This document shows, piece by piece, positions 5,257 to 52,397 of a stretch of 64,000 nt of DNA. The notes beneath the pieces are model-generated. The model was not told where the DNA came from, made no database searches, and saw nothing but the letters and a program-made list of their open reading frames with translations. The number at the start of each line of letters is the position of its first letter. Within the stretch, counting starts at the first letter, position 1. A program made the translations under genes and the position numbers. Where the stretch lies: positions 67,261,076 through 67,325,075 of the forward strand of contig OY757019.1 in assembly GCA_963580285.1 (NCBI GenBank). Reading direction: 5' to 3'. Source of the DNA: Lucinisca nassula. Its lineage: Eukaryota; Mollusca; Bivalvia; Lucinida; Lucinidae.

Positions 5257-8200
5257 ACAAGAGGGCCATGATGGCCCTGGATCGCTCACCTGATCCATAG
5301 GGTAAGAAGTGGGCCTCGGGGAGGGCCATTATTGACCCCAGGGTTATAATGTGCATAATGTTGAGGGAGGTCTAATAAGGTGAAGCTTCATACCAAATAT
5401 CAACAAAGGCTATAATTCGAAAATCTTGGCAAAGGTCCACTAGATGAAGTTTCACACCAAATATCAAAGACCTGGGCCTTGGGGTTTCAGAGAAGAAGAT
5501 TTTCGAAGATTATCCCAATATAAGTCTATGTAAAACCAAAGAGGCCTGGGGCGGGGGCATTTGTGGCCTGAGGGCTATAATTTGAACAATCTTGGTAGAG
5601 GTCCACTAGGTGAAGCTCCATACCAAATGTCAAAGACATGGGCCTTGCAGTTTCAGAGAAGAAGATTTTTAAAAGATTTCCCTATGTAAGTCTATGTAAA
5701 ACCAAAGGGTCTCAGGGAGGGGGCATTTTTGGCCCCCGGGCTATAATTTGAACAATCTTTATAGAGGTCCAATAGATGAAATTTCACACCAAATATCAAA
5801 GACCTAGGCCTTGTTGTTTCATAGATGAAGATTTTTCAAGATTTTCCCTATATAAGCCTATGAGTCTATGTTAAACCAAAGGGCCACGGAGCGGGGGCAT
5901 TTTTGGCCCCAGGGCTATAATTTGAACAATCTTGGTAGAGGTCCACAAGATGAAGCTTCATACCAAATATCAAAGACCTGGGCCTTGCAGTTTCAGAGAA
6001 GAAGATTTTTAAAGATTTCTCTATATAAGCTTATGTAAGAAGAAGATTTTTAAAGATTGTCCCTATTTAAGTCTATGTTAAACCAAAGGGCCACGTGGTG
6101 GGGGCATTTTTGCTCTCAGGGCTATAATTTGAACAATCTTGGTAGAGGTTCGCTATATTAGTCTGTGTAAAACCAAGGGCCCTGGAGCTGGGGCATTTTT
6201 GGCCCCAAGGCTATAATTTGAACAATCTTGGTACTGGTCCACAAGCTGAAGCTTCATAACAAATATCTGGCGGGGGCATTTTTGGTCTCGGCGCTATAAT
6301 TTGAACAATCTTGGTAGATGTCAACCAGCTGAAGCTTCATAACAAATATCAAAGACCTCAGACCTAAGCCTTGTGGTTTCAGAGAAGAAGATTTTTCCTA
6401 TATGTAAAACCAAAGAGCCCCGGAGCATGGGCATTTTTGGCCCAAGGGCTATAATTTAAACAAGGTCCCCAAGATGAAGCTTCATAACAAATATCAAAGA
6501 CCTGGGCCTTGTAGTTTCAGAGAAGAGGACTTTTAAAGATTTTCCCTATATAAGCCTATATAAAACCAAAGGGCCCTGGGGCGGGGGCATTTTTGGCCCC
6601 AGCACTATTATTTGAACAATCTTGGTAGGAATCCACTAGATGAAGCTTCATACCAAATATCAAAGACCTGGGCCTTGTGGTTTCAGAGAAGAGGATTTTT
6701 AAAGATTTTCCCTATATAAGCCCATGTAAAACAAAAGGAACCCTGGGGCGGTGTCATTTTTGGGCCCAGCACTATAATTTGAGCAATCTTTGTAGGGGTC
6801 CACTAGATGAAGCTTCACACCAAATATCAAAGACCTAGGCCTTGTGGTTTCAGAGAAGAAGATTTTAAAGATTTTCCCTATATATGCCTATGTAAAACCA
6901 AAGGGTCCCGGGGCGGGGGCTTTTTGGCCCCAGCACTACAATTTGAGCAATCTTGGTAGGGGTCCCACTATGTGAAGCTTCATACCAAATAGCAAAGACC
7001 AGGGCCTTGTGGTTTCAGAGAAGAAGATTTTTAAAGATTGTCCCTATATAAGTCTATGTTAAACCAAAGGGCCACGAGGAGGGGCATTTTAGGTCTCAGG
7101 GCTATAATTTGAACAATTTTGGTAGAGGTTCGCTATATTAGTCTATGTAAAACCAAAGGGCCCTGGAGCGGGGGCATTTTTGGCCCCAGGGCTATAATTT
7201 GAACAATCTTGGTAGAGGTCCACTAGCTGAAGCTTCATAACAAATATCAAAGACCTTAGCTTTGTGGTCTCTGAGAAGAAGATTTTCCCTATATAAGTCT
7301 ATGTTAAACAAAAGGGCCACATGACGGGGGCATTTTTGGTCTCTGCCCTATAATTTGAACAATCTTGGTAGAGGTTCACCAGCTGAAGCTTCATAACAAA
7401 TATCAAAGACCTAAGACCTTAGCCTTGTGGTTTCAGAGAAGAAGATATTTTCAAGATTTTCCCTATATGTAAAACCAAAGAGCCCTGGAGCGGGGGAATT
7501 TTTGGCCCAAGGGCTATAATTTGAACAATCTTGGTTGAGGTCCCAAAGGTGAAGCTTCATACCAAATATCAAAGACCTGGGCCTTGTAGTTTCAGAGAAG
7601 AGGACTTTTAAAGATTTTCCCTATATAAGCCTAAGTAAAACCAAAGGGCCCCGGGACGGTGGCATTTTTGGCCCCAGCACTATAATTTGTACTTGGTAGG
7701 GGTCCACTAGATGAAGCTTCATACCAAATAGCAAAGACCTGGGCCTTGCAGTTTCAGAGAAGAAGATTTTAAAGATTTTCCCTATATAAGCCCATGTAAA
7801 ACAAAAGGGCCCCGGGGCGGGGGCATTTTTGGCCCCAGCACTATTATTTGAACAATCTTGGTAGGGGTCCACTAGATGAAGCTTCATACCAAATATCAAA
7901 GACTGGGCCTTGCGGTTTCGGCGAAGAAGATTTTTTTAAAGATTTTCCCTATATAAGCCCATGTAAAAGCAAAGGGCCCTGGGGGCGGGGGAATTTTTGG
8001 CCCCAGCATTATAATTTCAACAATCTTGGTAGGGGTCCACTAGATGAAGCTTCATACCAAATATCAAAGACCTGGGCCTTGCAGTTTCAGAGAAGAAGAT
8101 TTTTAAAGATTTTCTCTTTATAATCCCATGTAAAACCAAAGGACCCCAGTGCGGGGGCATTTTTGGCCCCAGCACTATAATTTGAATAATCTTGGTAGGG

Positions 8201-24679: not shown

Positions 24680-25180
24680 ACAAGAGGGCCCAAAGGGCCC
24701 TGAATCGCTCACCTGAGAATTAGTGTCTCCAAGGGCTATAATTTGAACAAACTCGGTAATGGTCCACTAGATGAAGCTTCATACCAAATATCAAAGACCT
24801 GGGCCTTCTGGTTTCAGACAAGAAGATTTTTTAAGGTTTTCCCTATATAAGCCTATGAAAAACCAAAGGGTCCCGGAGTGGGGGCATCTTTGGCCCCAGG
24901 GCTATAATTTGAACAATCTTGAAAGAGGTCCACTAGATGAAGTTTCACACCAAATACCAAAGATCTGGGCCTTGCGCATTCAGGGAAGAAGATTTTTAAA
25001 GATTTTCCATGTATAAGCCTACGTAAAACCAAAGGCCCCAGGGGTGGGGGCATTTTTGGCCCCAGGGCTATAATTTTAACAATCTTGGTAGAGGTCTACT
25101 AGTTGAAGCTTCATATCAAATAGCATAGAGCAGGGCCTTGTGGTATCAGAGAAGAAGAATTTTAAATATTTTCCCTAATT

Positions 25181-25334
25181 AATAAAAATAAAAAATGAGT
25201 TCCTTTAAGAGCAATGAAAACATTCATAAGAAAGAAGATGGGTCATACTACGTAGTTTTGGCTATTAAAGCCTCATCAGTGACTCTGTAATGATCCGGCA
25301 AAGAAAGCCTGTGAAAACTTACTGCAATTTTGCG
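25181..25334 (-). mobile_element. Hammerhead-bearing insert, copy 1
   Basis: About 154 bp, foreign to the pearl monomer and sharing GAGTTCCTTTAAGAGCAATG and ACATTCATAAGAAAGAAGATG with copy 2. It lies at the end of a shortened GATTTTCCCTA block, and the monomer resumes with AAGCCTGTGAAAAACC. It is shorter at its right end than copy 2, stopping after TGCAATTTTGCG. Retrozyme or ribozyme-SINE origin is inferred. Confidence 0.65.
25240..25285 (-). ncRNA. Hammerhead ribozyme, mutated core
   Basis: On the minus strand: stem I strand GAGTCA, core CTGATGA, stem II GGCT/AGCC with loop TTAAT, then AAAA in place of GAAA, a 3 bp stem III with loop ACGT, TA at the cleavage position, and TGACCC. The invariant G12 is A, and stem I has one A-C mismatch. 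It keeps the fold but should be catalytically dead, because G12 is needed for hammerhead catalysis. Confidence 0.75.
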
Positions 25335-25504
25335 ATTAAGCCTGTGAAAAACCAAAGGGTCCAAGGGTGGGGGCATTTTTGGTCCTAGGGCTATAATTTG
25401 AACAATCTAGATAGAGGTCCAATATATAAAGCTTCACACCAAATATCTAAGACCTTAGCCTTGCAGTTTCTGAGAAGAAGTTTCTTTAAAGATTTTCCCT
25501 ATAT

Positions 25505-25692
25505 AATAAAAATCAAAAATGAGTTCCTTTAAGAGCAATGAAAACATTCATAAGAAAGAAGATGGGTCATACTGCGTAGTTTCGGCTAATAAAGCCTCAT
25601 CAGTGACCCTGTAATATTCCGGCAAAGAAAGCCAGAGGAAACATACTGCAATTTTGCAAATTTCGAATAGGCAGTCTTTGATACCTTGCAGA
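25505..25692 (-). mobile_element. Hammerhead-bearing insert, copy 2
   Basis: Homologous to 25181-25334 and longer by about 40 bp at its right side (TTTCGAATAGGCAGTC...). One pearl monomer separates the two copies; together insert plus monomer repeat with a 324 bp offset. No protein is encoded. It may be a non-autonomous ribozyme retroelement of the animal retrozyme type, or a fragment of a Penelope-like element; both classes carry type I hammerheads. Confidence 0.65.
25564..25609 (-). ncRNA. Type I hammerhead ribozyme, all core positions intact
   Basis: Read on the minus strand from 25609: GGGTCA (stem I, 5' strand), CTGATGA (core 3-9), GGCT-TTATT-AGCC (stem II, 4 bp with a 5-nt loop), GAA plus A15.1, then CT-ACGC-AG closing stem III (A-U, C-G, U-A), U16.1, A17 as the cleavage-site base, then TGACCC pairing perfectly with GGGTCA. 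Every invariant residue of the hammerhead core is present and both longer stems are fully paired. Cleavage is predicted after A at 25570. A very short stem III closed by a 4-nt loop is characteristic of hammerheads in Penelope-like elements and animal retrozymes. This is a structural call; activity is not shown. Confidence 0.85.
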
Positions 25693-27424
25693 AAGAAGAA
25701 GATTTTTTAATGATTTTCCCAATATAAGCCTATGTAAAACCAAAAGCCCCCGGGGCAGGGACATTTTTGGCCCCAGGGCTATAATTTGAACAATCTTGGT
25801 AGAGGTCCATTAGATTAAGCTTCACACCAAAGAAAAGTTTCAAAGATTTCCCCTACATAAGCTTGGGTAAAACCAAAGGCCCCCTGGGCGGGGGCATTTT
25901 TGGCCCCAGGGCTATAATTTGAACATTCTTGGTAGAGGTCCACTAGGTGAAGCTTCATACCAAATATCAAAGACCTGGGCCTTGTGGTTTCAGAGAAGAA
26001 GATTTTCCCTATTTAAGCCTATGAAAAACCAAAGGGTCCAAGGGTGGGGCCATTTTCGGCCCCAGGGCTATAATTTGTACAACCTTGAAAGAGGTCCACT
26101 AGATGAAGCTTCAAACCAAATATCAAAGATCTGGGCCTTGCGGTTTCAGAGAAGATTTTTAAAGATTTTCCCTGTATAAGCCTATGTAAAACCAAAGGCC
26201 CCCGGGGCGGGGCATTTCTGGCCCAAAGCTATAATTTGAACAATCTTAGTAAAGGTCCACCAGGTAAAGCTTCACACAAAATATTAAAGACCTGGGCCTT
26301 GTGGTTTCAAAGAAGAAGATTTTTTAATGATTTTCCCAATATAAGCCTATGTAAAACCCTAGGCCCCCGGGGCGGGGGCATTTTGGCCCCCAGGGCTATA
26401 ATTTGAACAATCTTGGTAGAGGTCCACTAGATGAAGCTTCAAACCAAATATCAAAGATCTGGGTCTTGCGGTTTCAGAGAAGAAGACTTTTAAAGATTTT
26501 CCCTGTATAAGCCTATGTAAAACCAAAGGACCCCGGGGCGGGGGCATTTTTGGCCCCAAGGCTATAATTTGAACAATCTTAGTAGAGGTCCACTAGGTAA
26601 AGCTTCACACCAAATATTAAAGACCTGGGCCTTGTGGTTTCCGAGGAGAAGATTTTTAAATGATTTTCCCTATATAAACCTATGTAAAACCATAGGCCCC
26701 CGGGGCGGGGGCATTTTGGCCCCCAGGGCTATAATTTGAACAATCTTGGTAGAGGTCCACTAGATGAAGCTTCACACCAAATATCAATGATCTGGGCCTT
26801 GCTGTTTCATTGAAGAAGGTATTTAAAGATTTTCCCTGTATAAGCCTATGTAAAACCAAAGGCCCCCCGGGTGGGGGCATTTTTGGCCCCAAGGCTATAA
26901 TTTGAACAATCTTATTAGAGGTCCACCAGGTAAAGCTTCACACCAAATCTCAAAGACCTGGGCCTTGTGGTTTCCGAGAAGAAGATTTTTTAATGATTTT
27001 CCCTATATAAGCCTATGTAAAACCAAAGGCCCCCGGGGCGGGAGCATTTTGGCCCCCAGGGCTATTATTTGAACAATCTTGGTAGAGGTCCACTAGATGA
27101 AGATTCATACCAAATATCGAAGACCTGGGCCTTGTGGTTTCGGAGAAGTAGATTTTTAAAGTTTTCGTTTAAAAAATCTATTTTTAGCTCCTGTGACCCA
27201 GATGTGCAATGGACCAGAACCATTTGAACAATTTTGAAAGGGGACCACCTAAGGATCATTGCTGTGAAGTTTGGTCAAAATCCGATCAGTGGTTTAGGAG
27301 ATGTCATTTGAAGAAAAAGTTTATGCACACACACACACACGCACGCACACACGCACGCACTGACGACGGACGAAAAGTGATCACAAAAGCTCACCTTGTC
27401 ACTACGTGACAGGTGAGCCAAAAA

Positions 27425-35051: not shown

Positions 35052-35257
35052 ATTGTTTTCCTATTTTGGTTTTGGTTTTACGAGCCTTTCAAGATTATTT
35101 CAATTATTTCAAGCTGACTGTTAATCAGGTGGATGAAAACCAGAGTGCCTGGGAAAAACCCACCTGACCTTCATGTTACTAAAGCGATACTTGAAACCAC
35201 AATGGTGAGAGACTTAATGACTGTCGGCGCTCTCACCAAATAGGCCACGATGCCTGT
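35052..35257 (-). mobile_element. SINE of the 21201 family, internally deleted
   Basis: The minus-strand head GGCATCGTGGCCTATTTGG...AGAGCGCCGAC, GTCTCTCACC and a decayed B box (GGTTTCAAG) are followed by GGTCAGGTGG, CACTCTGGTTTTC and AAATAATCTTGAAAGGC, with an AAAACCAAAACC tail. Compared with 21201-21435 it lacks about 30 bp after the B box. Flanking CAGATGTCC (35043-35051) and CAGAAGTCC (35258-35266) form a 9 bp target-site duplication with one mismatch. It lies 72 bp beyond the COG8 exon donor, in the same orientation as the gene. Confidence 0.8.
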
Positions 35258-35329
35258 CAGAAGTCCCTTATAAAAATGGTGAAAACATGGCAAGTGTATC
35301 CATTCCAGAAAGACAAAACTGATACTTAC

Positions 35330-35501
35330 AGCTAAAATAGGTATAGCTGAATGTTTTTTCTCCATTCTCTTTACATACAAAGCCAGTTCTAGTGCTTCAT
35401 CATAGTAACAGTTTCTTACGCATGTATCCATTAGCTGGGGGACTTCAAGTACCTCTAGTAACTGGGTATGTCTCTGTAGGGTCAGTGTGTTCATCTTACG
35501 G
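35330..35501 (-). CDS. COG8: Internal exon of conserved oligomeric Golgi complex subunit 8 (partial gene)
   Basis: Minus-strand exon of 172 bp. The acceptor is TTTTCAG (AG at 35503-35502) and the donor GTAAGT starts at 35329. It encodes one base of a split codon plus 57 residues: RKMNTLTLQRHTQLLEVLE, VPQLMDTCVRN, YYDEALELALYVKRMEKKH and SAIPILA, ending in phase 0. This matches the highly conserved N-terminal part of COG8 (RHT..LE.LE.PQLMDTCVRN.YY.EALELA.YV.R.E), a subunit of the lobe B tether that guides retrograde vesicles to the Golgi. An open frame continues past the donor into a SINE, which is why the splice site, not the frame, sets the end. A Cys follows RN where Ser or Gly is usual. 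No other exon of the gene was recognised in the window, so both flanking introns are long or the gene is scattered. Confidence 0.85.
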
Positions 35502-35513
35502 CTGAAAATTACA

Positions 35514-36043
35514 ACAAGAGGACCATGATGGTCCTATATCGCTCACCTGAGCTAAGAGATTTACATTCTTAATATTAAAGTTTCACACGGTAAATTGCTT
35601 GAAGACTGTGTAAATGTTTTGACCCCAGAGGTTTTACTTGAGCAACCTTGGTAGAGGTCACTGTTTGAAGCTACAAGCCAAATAGTCCACTAGATGAAGG
35701 TACATACCAAATATCAGAAACCTGGGCCTTCTGGTTTCAGACAAGAGAGTCGTAAGGTTTTCTCTATTAATCTCTATGGAAAACGTGGGCCCCTCAGTGG
35801 GTTCATTTTTGGCCCCAGGCCTTAATTTGAACAATCTTGGAAGAGGTCTACATACCAAATATCAAGAACATGTGGGCCCCTGGGTGGGGCGATTTTTGGC
35901 CCCTTGGTTTTAATTTGGAAAATCTTGATAGAGGTCCACTAGAAGACAACTCATACCAAATATCAGAGACCTGTGCCTTCTGGTTTATGACATGCACGCC
36001 GAACATTGACTGACCATGAGCACTTTGTGCTCAGGTGAGCTAA
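35514..36043. mobile_element. Short pearl-like element 12 bp from the COG8 splice acceptor
   Basis: The head ACAAGAGGACCATGATGGTCC is followed by two to three degraded 165 bp-type monomers with CTTCTGGTTTCAGACAAG, and the tail hairpin ATGAGCACTTTGTGCTCAGGTGAGCTAA. On the gene's strand its end reads ...GGTCCTCTTGT and sits immediately upstream of the remaining TGTAATTTTCAG of the intron. Confidence 0.75.
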
Positions 36044-51594: not shown

Positions 51595-52397
51595 ACTGTG
51601 GGCCCTAGGGCAGGGCCAACTTTGGCCCCAGGGTTATAGTTAGAACCTCCACAGCAGAGGTCCACCAGGTGATTTGTTTTTTGTTTGTTTGTTTGTATTG
51701 GAGTTGAATGACCCAGGCAACACTATTTTAGGTCATTTTTGAGCCGGTCAGTTTACCTATCCACACTTCACTGGGCAAACTTTGATTTTTGATTCATTTT
51801 TGATTTTTATTATACAAAAGCGGTTAACCAGTACAGTGCACATTCTTTCACCAGAAATTGACAACTTCCCTTCTTGAATCAGCGGAAGGGAGAGAATGAC
51901 TGTAGAAAAGATTTCATGATCAATCTCCACAAAAGAATGTTGCCGACCCCGGCAGGAATCAAACCCACATCCTCCTGATCACCAGTCAGACGCGCATCTT
52001 ACTGAGCTACCGAGCTTCATATCAAAATATCAAAGACCTGGGCCTTCTGGTTTCAGACAAGAAGATTTTTAAAGGTATTCCCTATATAATCAAAGTAAAA
52101 ACCTGTGGGACCCAGGGTGGGGCCATTTTTGACCACAAGGCTATGATTTGAACAATCTTGGTAGAGGTCACTAGATGAAGCTTCATACCAAACATCAAAG
52201 ACCTAGGCTTTGTGGTTTCAAACAAGAAGATTTTTAAAGGGCTTTCCTATGTAAGTCTATGTAAAACCAGTTGGCCCCAGGGCTATTATATGGACAATCA
52301 TAGTTAAGGCCCACCAGATGAAGCTTCATACCAAATATCAAAGACCTGGGCCTTCTGGTTTCAGACAAGAAGATTTTTAAAGGTTTTCCCTATATAA
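51595..52397. repeat. Divergent 165 bp-type array carrying a SINE
   Basis: About three monomers of the CTTCTGGTTTCAGACAAGAAG variant, cut by a SINE (51674-52014). It breaks at GGTTTTCCCTATATAA, where the next head starts. Confidence 0.65.
51674..52014 (-). mobile_element. Full-length tRNA-derived SINE
   Basis: The minus-strand head CTCGGTAGCTCAGTAAGATG is the A-box region and GGTTTGATTCC (51965-51955) the B box. The body CCGGGGTCGGCAACATTC... and AAACTGACCGGCTCAAAAATG follows, with the tail CCAATAC(AAAC)n. It has an extra AT-rich segment of about 35 bp (near 51780-51825) absent from 31554-31794. No clear target duplication was seen. Confidence 0.8.

What the first reader, a model, noticed from the sequence alone, without database searches (positions are those of the whole stretch)
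25564..25609. Intact type I hammerhead ribozyme inside a tandem-repeat element
The minus strand carries CTGATGA, a 4 bp stem II, GAAA, a 3 bp stem III, a UA cleavage site and a perfectly paired 6 bp stem I (GGGTCA/TGACCC). All invariant core bases are present. Hammerheads with tiny stem III occur in Penelope-like elements and animal retrozymes, which work as dimers or circles. Its presence inside a pearl/Helentron-like core array is unexpected.
Basis: partly seen in the sequence, partly recalled or inferred. Interest (0 to 1): 0.9.

Follow-up and report, generated by a model that had tools for sequence, protein, structure and literature searches.

The report
Hammerhead retrozyme fragment in satellite array
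A real self-cleaving-RNA motif sits here, most likely because a small ribozyme-carrying jumping element of this animal genome landed in a satellite repeat, at a position where the same kind of junction is also seen elsewhere in the genome.

Summary
Minus strand 25609-25564 is a complete type I hammerhead (stems of 6, 4 and 3 bp, all core bases), expected 0.0013 times per window by chance. It lies in a 172-bp, 5'-truncated piece (25505-25676) of a non-LTR retrozyme that occurs in the same genome as 383-bp tandem units (L031, L057) and as dispersed copies up to 99.4% identical. The 11 insertion ends read share one 3' boundary. An older copy with a broken core lies 324 bp away. That period is not a duplication: flanking monomers are 78.7% identical, and the two copies are no closer to each other than to other members. 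A junction search scored 40 of 1439 candidates; all 40, the window included, match across the same retrozyme/satellite junction. In the one read (L058) the retrozyme half is 65/65 identical, the monomer half 51/59. This favours repeated landing at one A/T-rich satellite site. Activity of the window copy is doubtful: a loop change breaks the stem III palindrome through which family members are predicted to pair as dimers.

The parts
25564..25609 (-). Type I hammerhead ribozyme, core intact; cleavage predicted between 25570 and 25569
25505..25676 (-). Retrozyme fragment 'win2', 172 bp (0.45 of a 383-bp unit), family 3' end at 25505 (exact to 1-2 bases), 5'-truncated
25240..25285 (-). Second hammerhead, degenerate: G12 to A (GAAA to AAAA) and one stem I mismatch; predicted inactive
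25180..25333 (-). Older retrozyme fragment 'win1', about 153 bp, same 3' end, different 5' truncation
24690..27158 (+). Array of 166-bp satellite monomers in which both fragments sit, at the CCCTATATAA position of the monomer
24707..24725 (+). Left arm of a 19-nt, 79% complementary inverted repeat around the array (partner 27400-27418); possible Helentron subterminal repeat
27389..27418 (+). Hairpin-like GCTCACCT...GGTGAGC after the microsatellite, right flank of the array

Best explanation
The hammerhead belongs to a truncated copy of a non-autonomous non-LTR retrozyme family of this genome. Shown here: 383-bp head-to-tail units each with one hammerhead, dispersed copies that share one 3' boundary (CATTTTTKATTTTTAT) while their 5' ends vary, a non-coding unit, and the same junction with the 166-bp satellite at many loci. 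Inferred: tandem transcripts are cut by the hammerheads (probably best as dimers through the palindromic stem III), the monomers are circularised by a host ligase, and a reverse transcriptase supplied in trans (Penelope-like or LINE) starts at a nicked A/T-rich target on the U-rich stretch at the boundary. It copies part of a unit, one unit or several rounds, which would explain a 172-bp piece here and a 3.3-unit array in L031. In the window two such insertions, an old and a recent one, hit the same CCCTATATAA position of neighbouring satellite monomers. The window copies look like products, not sources: one core is broken and the other is then a lone ribozyme, so no circle is expected to be cut out of this locus.
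For: L031 holds 3.3 copies of a 383-bp unit, each with the hammerhead; L057 shows a full unit from one of five listed pairs. The window fragment is 99.4% identical to L051 and L052. DNA search of the own genome: 40 of 40 scored places (969 candidates) match at 97% or more over 164-171 bases, the window's own place included; five pairs are spaced 382-389 bp. The 11 insertion ends read (win1, win2, ends of L031 and L057, L058, L051-L056) share the boundary and their flanks begin with A or T. One unit: GC 39.2%, longest ATG frame 36 aa with the unit closed to a circle. Junction search: 40 of 40 scored places (own place included) of 1439 candidates cover 130-131 of the 131 query positions; 39 of them at 91-95%, the window at 100%; one further row is a 29-nt piece. 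L058: 65/65 identical in the retrozyme half, 51/59 plus one gap in the monomer half. Literature: animal retrozymes 150-450 bp and below 50% GC, mussel units about 350-390 bp in two similar ribozyme families (PMC7229834, parts 1-4 of 6 read).
Against: Expression, self-cleavage and circles were not tested. L051-L056 were picked by me from the top 40 hits, none from a listed pair, and located the boundary by its motif, so 11 of 11 is not an unbiased count. The two 5'-junction searches that would separate independent insertion from descent more fully did not complete. As monomers, not only the window copy but also L031a, L051, L034 and L031b are predicted to prefer a non-hammerhead fold; as a dimer L031b does too. 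Four of the ten hammerheads aligned have a changed core base (win1, L053, L031b, L034). The helper enzyme is unknown: the one Penelope family compared has a different 3' end, several copies of it being followed by TA runs.
Confidence: 0.85

Rival explanations
1. Composite element: the hammerhead became part of the satellite/Helentron element once and has been copied with it, so the recurrent junction reflects descent.
For: The same junction recurs at all 40 scored places; Helentron-like elements carry and spread satellite cores (PMC7492417, abstract and one section read). Two pairs of hits lie 598 and 1280 bp apart, as local copying would give.
Against: In L058 the retrozyme half is 65/65 and the monomer half 51/59 identical; the monomers flanking the two window copies are 78.7% identical, below the medians for those monomers; no listed junction hit other than the window itself exceeds 95%.
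Confidence: 0.08
2. A piece of a Penelope-like element pLTR, whose minimal hammerhead it resembles.
For: The genome is rich in GIY-YIG frames of the Penelope kind (138 matches from 150 scored of 746 candidates); such elements carry type I hammerheads with short or missing stem III (PMC11167929 and PMC7761336, passages). The L031 array lies beside one, and 41 bases of the retrozyme recur exactly inside another (L007).
Against: The repeat unit is 383 bp with no ATG frame above 36 aa; apart from its own array and two other hammerheads, the unit finds only weak hits (E 0.011 or worse) in the 20 ten-kb Penelope stretches (L007 was not in that comparison); the Penelope-type hammerhead found in L049 (two copies 2144 bp apart) has another sequence and a 3-bp stem II; the hammerheads in L031 are on the strand opposite to the frame.
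Confidence: 0.05
3. One insertion, duplicated locally as a 324-bp unit (as the tandem-repeat finder suggests).
For: 25014-25657 is reported as two copies of 324 bp at 85%; both fragments sit at the same monomer position.
Against: Fragments 92.8% identical, while the older is 92.8-94.1% identical to the other members compared and the younger 99.4% to copies elsewhere; different 5' ends; flanking monomers 78.7%.
Confidence: 0.05
4. Chance resemblance to a hammerhead.
For: The loose core pattern alone is expected 0.52 times per window; no Rfam gathering match.
Against: Full descriptor expected 0.0013 times per window; a family of copies in the genome keeps the motif.
Confidence: 0.01

Closest known systems
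Animal non-LTR retrozymes, above all those of the mussel Mytilus galloprovincialis (Cervera and de la Pena 2020, PMC7229834)
   Same: Type I hammerhead, tandem units of about 350-390 bp (383 here), low GC, two related hammerhead subfamilies, no coding frame
   Different: Sequences could not be compared (mussel sequences not held). Seen here and not in the parts of that paper that I read: one shared 3' end with variable 5' truncation, and a recurrent junction with a 166-bp satellite
Penelope-like element pLTR hammerheads (PMC11167929, PMC7761336; passages)
   Same: Type I, short stem III, tandem arrangement suited to dimers
   Different: No reverse transcriptase or GIY-YIG frame in the unit; longer stem II; 383-bp unit; different 3' end from the family compared
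Newt and axolotl satellite hammerheads / retrozymes (PMC7229834, PMC6155905)
   Same: Weak stem III with palindromic loop, dimer activity reported there, satellite-like tandem repeats
   Different: Here the satellite (166 bp) and the ribozyme element (383 bp) are two different repeats
Helentron-type non-autonomous elements (Cg_HINE, PMC7492417; pearl elements, recalled)
   Same: Tandem core repeats with microsatellite, hairpin and subterminal inverted repeats
   Different: This is the host array, not the ribozyme element; its termini are only sketched here

Membership tests
Animal non-LTR retrozyme | Type I hammerhead with conserved core | tested here: met
   window copy and 5 of the other 9 aligned copies keep CTGATGA and GAAA; descriptor scan
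Animal non-LTR retrozyme | Hammerhead inside tandem repeats of about 150-450 bp | tested here: met
   383-bp units in L031 and L057; five pairs spaced 382-389 bp, L057 being from one of them. The window pieces themselves are truncated fragments
Animal non-LTR retrozyme | GC below 50%, non-coding | tested here: met
   one L031 unit: 39.2% GC, longest ATG frame 36 aa
Animal non-LTR retrozyme | No LTR, primer binding site or polypurine tract | not tested
   no dedicated search was made
Animal non-LTR retrozyme | Expressed as linear and circular RNA; hammerhead cleaves | not testable with these tools
   no RNA data or bench work
Penelope-like element pLTR | Hammerhead in the pLTR of a reverse transcriptase plus GIY-YIG frame, same strand | tested here: not met
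Helentron/HINE element (host array) | Tandem core, microsatellite, subterminal inverted repeats, 3' hairpin | tested here: inconclusive
   core, microsatellites, a 19-nt 79% inverted pair and a hairpin-like stretch seen; termini, insertion site and autonomous partner not established

The most novel reading that the evidence does not exclude
A retrozyme with a preferred landing site: circular hammerhead RNA is reverse-transcribed from a fixed internal start into one A/T-rich position of a Helentron-borne satellite, so that the satellite works as a landing pad and the DNA transposon can carry the ribozyme to new places and new promoters.
Probability: 0.3. Interest if true: 0.65.

Novelty: new member of a known kind. 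Interest (0 to 1): 0.45.

Why it matters
How animal retrozymes get back into DNA is open; PMC7229834 names LINEs or Penelope-like elements as likely helpers. A shared 3' boundary inside a circular unit, with 5' ends anywhere and arrays of non-integer length, would be a footprint of target-primed copying of a circle. A satellite with one recurrent landing site would supply many junctions to read that mechanism from. The case also shows that a satellite array can hold a ribozyme that does not belong to it, and that Rfam's hammerhead models miss the copies tested here at their cut-offs.

Tried and rejected
Rfam RF00163 in the own genome gave 0 matches, but its 14 control genomes gave none either, so it says nothing. 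A scan of viral contigs for the family motif gave 0. Similarity of the retrozyme 3' end to the main Penelope family was looked for and not found. The idea that L031's hammerheads lay in the Penelope element was dropped when strands were compared. The 324-bp tandem duplication was considered and rejected. A target-site duplication of about 45 bp at the younger copy is suggested by restarting monomer sequence (CCTTGCAG on both sides), but in a satellite it cannot be told from array rearrangement. The species was not identified; 'bivalve' rests on a recalled resemblance of the satellite to pearl/Helentron cores and is not used as evidence. Covariation is weak: among 9 distinct rows one pair has changes on both sides, which 273 of 500 shuffles also reach, and 39 of 500 shuffles reach the covariation score. 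The hammerhead-fold energies printed for the win1 monomer and the L031b monomer include non-standard pairs and were not used.

Full report
OBSERVATION. The minus strand 25609-25564 reads as a complete type I hammerhead with stems of 6, 4 and 3 bp and all core bases. A full descriptor scan finds this site alone in the window and expects 0.0013 by chance. Rfam does not report it at its cut-off, but neither does it report L031, L051, L052 or the Penelope-type hammerhead in L049. A second copy at 25285-25240 has lost G12, the proposed general base (PMC6155905, passage), and one stem I pair.

WHAT IT IS. The window lies in a 2.93-Gb genome. From a search for GIY-YIG domains (138 matches from 150 scored) I fetched 20 ten-kb stretches. 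One, L031, holds at 5661-6914 a tandem of 3.3 units of 383 bp, each with the hammerhead GGGTCACTGATGAGGCTTTATGAGCCGAAACTACGTAGTATGACCC. One unit is 39.2% GC and has no ATG frame above 36 aa. A DNA search with the window fragment scored 40 of 969 candidates; all 40 match at 97% or more, the window's own place among them. Five pairs are spaced 382-389 bp, the tandem period; a full unit from one pair was read (L057). These are the marks of an animal non-LTR retrozyme; mussel units are about 350-390 bp with two similar ribozyme families (PMC7229834). A second subfamily occurs here too (L031 at 7323, L034 at 38; L033 is a further form): stem II changes U-A to C-G, and the stem III palindrome changes from ACUACGUAGU to ACUAGCUAGU while staying a palindrome. 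The two copies of that subfamily that I read each have one changed base in CTGATGA, and L053 of the first has one in GAAA, so of ten aligned hammerheads six keep the core (win2, L031a, L051, L055, L056, L033) and four do not (win1, L053, L031b, L034).

ENDS. Eleven insertion ends were read: win1, win2, the ends of L031 and L057, L058, and L051-L056. All 11 run to CATTTTTKATTTTTAT and then into flanks that begin with A or T and differ from the internal unit, which continues TTGCCTTCACTG. I chose L051-L056 from the top 40 hits, none from a listed pair, and the script found the boundary by its motif, so this is not an unbiased sample. The 5' ends vary (25676 and about 25333 in the window, beside the hammerhead in L031, further upstream in L051 and L055). 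A shared 3' end inside a circular unit with free 5' ends is what target-primed copying of a circular RNA from one start would leave. That step is inferred.

WHY IN A SATELLITE. Both window fragments sit at CCCTATATAA of a 166-bp monomer. The 324-bp spacing is 166 plus the insert length. It is not a duplication: the monomers flanking the two copies are 78.7% identical over 150 bp, below their medians against the other monomers of the window (0.837 and 0.807). The older fragment is 92.8% identical to the younger and 92.8-94.1% to the other members compared, while the younger is 99.4% identical to L051 and L052. A search with 66 nt of retrozyme plus 65 nt of monomer scored 40 of 1439 candidates. 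All 40, the window included, cover 130-131 of the 131 query positions, 39 of them at 91-95% (a 41st row is a 29-nt piece). The one I could read, L058, has 65/65 identical letters in the retrozyme half and 51/59 plus one gap in the monomer half. Copying of a ready-made composite would leave both halves about equally diverged, so independent landing at one site is favoured. The overall identities of the other 38 fit this but do not prove it. The site may be favoured simply because the satellite supplies most such motifs: 62 of 92 TATATAA in the window are CCCTATATAA.

ACTIVITY. For L051 and L034 the lowest-energy dimer is the double hammerhead (-39.3 and -43.3 kcal/mol), for L031a nearly so (-39.7 best, -37.9 double hammerhead), for L031b not (-37.1 against -32.1). 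As monomers, all of these prefer another fold (L051 -12.5 against -11.7; L031a -12.7 against -11.0; L034 -15.7 against -13.3). The window copy carries a T-to-C change in the stem III loop, shared by L055; it is no longer palindromic and prefers other folds as monomer (-14.3 against -11.7) and as dimer (-35.1 against -29.9). These energies ignore tertiary contacts and proteins; a Penelope hammerhead has been reported to need its protein (PMC11167929, passage). With the neighbouring core broken, no circle is expected from this locus.

LITERATURE. PMC7229834: parts 1-4 of 6 read. PMC7761336, PMC6155905, PMC11167929, PMC4918200: passages. PMC7492417: outline with abstract, and one section. PMC4209133 (Penelope hammerheads) is not held. 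Three papers hold both 'hammerhead ribozyme' and 'Helitron' (listing only). None holds 'hammerhead ribozyme', 'satellite DNA' and 'bivalve' together. Of 20 papers holding three of 'retrozyme', 'satellite DNA', 'Helitron', 'Helentron', the 10 listed contain no 'retrozyme'; the other 10 were not seen. That recurrent satellite landing is unreported rests on these searches and on the listings only.

VERDICT. A genuine hammerhead on a new member of a known kind of mobile element, in an unusual but explainable place. The most interesting part is not the ribozyme but the recurrent junction with one satellite site and the shared 3' end.

Noticed in passing
L049 2920 and 5064 (+): Penelope-type minimal hammerhead TATTCCCCTGATGAGTTATAAACGAAACCGGTTGGGAATA in two copies 2144 bp apart around a 639-aa frame, with palindromic ACCGGT in stem III.
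   Followed up: partly
L007 2658-2698: 41 bases identical to the retrozyme stretch just after the hammerhead lie inside a Penelope-like locus, apparently on the strand opposite to its frame; possibly a template jump or inverted priming.
   Followed up: no
L031-L037, L042, L045: A very uniform (about 98-99%) Penelope-like family with frames of up to 764 aa, in L034 in tandem with a period of about 4 kb; several copies end at TTATTTATCAAAGTA followed by TA runs, suggesting TA-microsatellite targets.
   Followed up: partly
window, arrays from 1725 to 63999: The 166-bp arrays recur with caps of a few hundred bp that hold a microsatellite and, beside the hammerhead-bearing array, a hairpin-like stretch; other arrays have 144-145-bp and 168-bp monomers. 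Looks Helentron-like.
   Followed up: partly
window 35171-35533 (-): Open frame resembling an exon of the COG8 Golgi complex subunit (recognised from memory, not searched).
   Followed up: no
window 51944-52016 (-): tRNA-like match just over the Rfam cut-off (30.9 bits, cut-off 29, E 0.018), possibly a SINE head.
   Followed up: no
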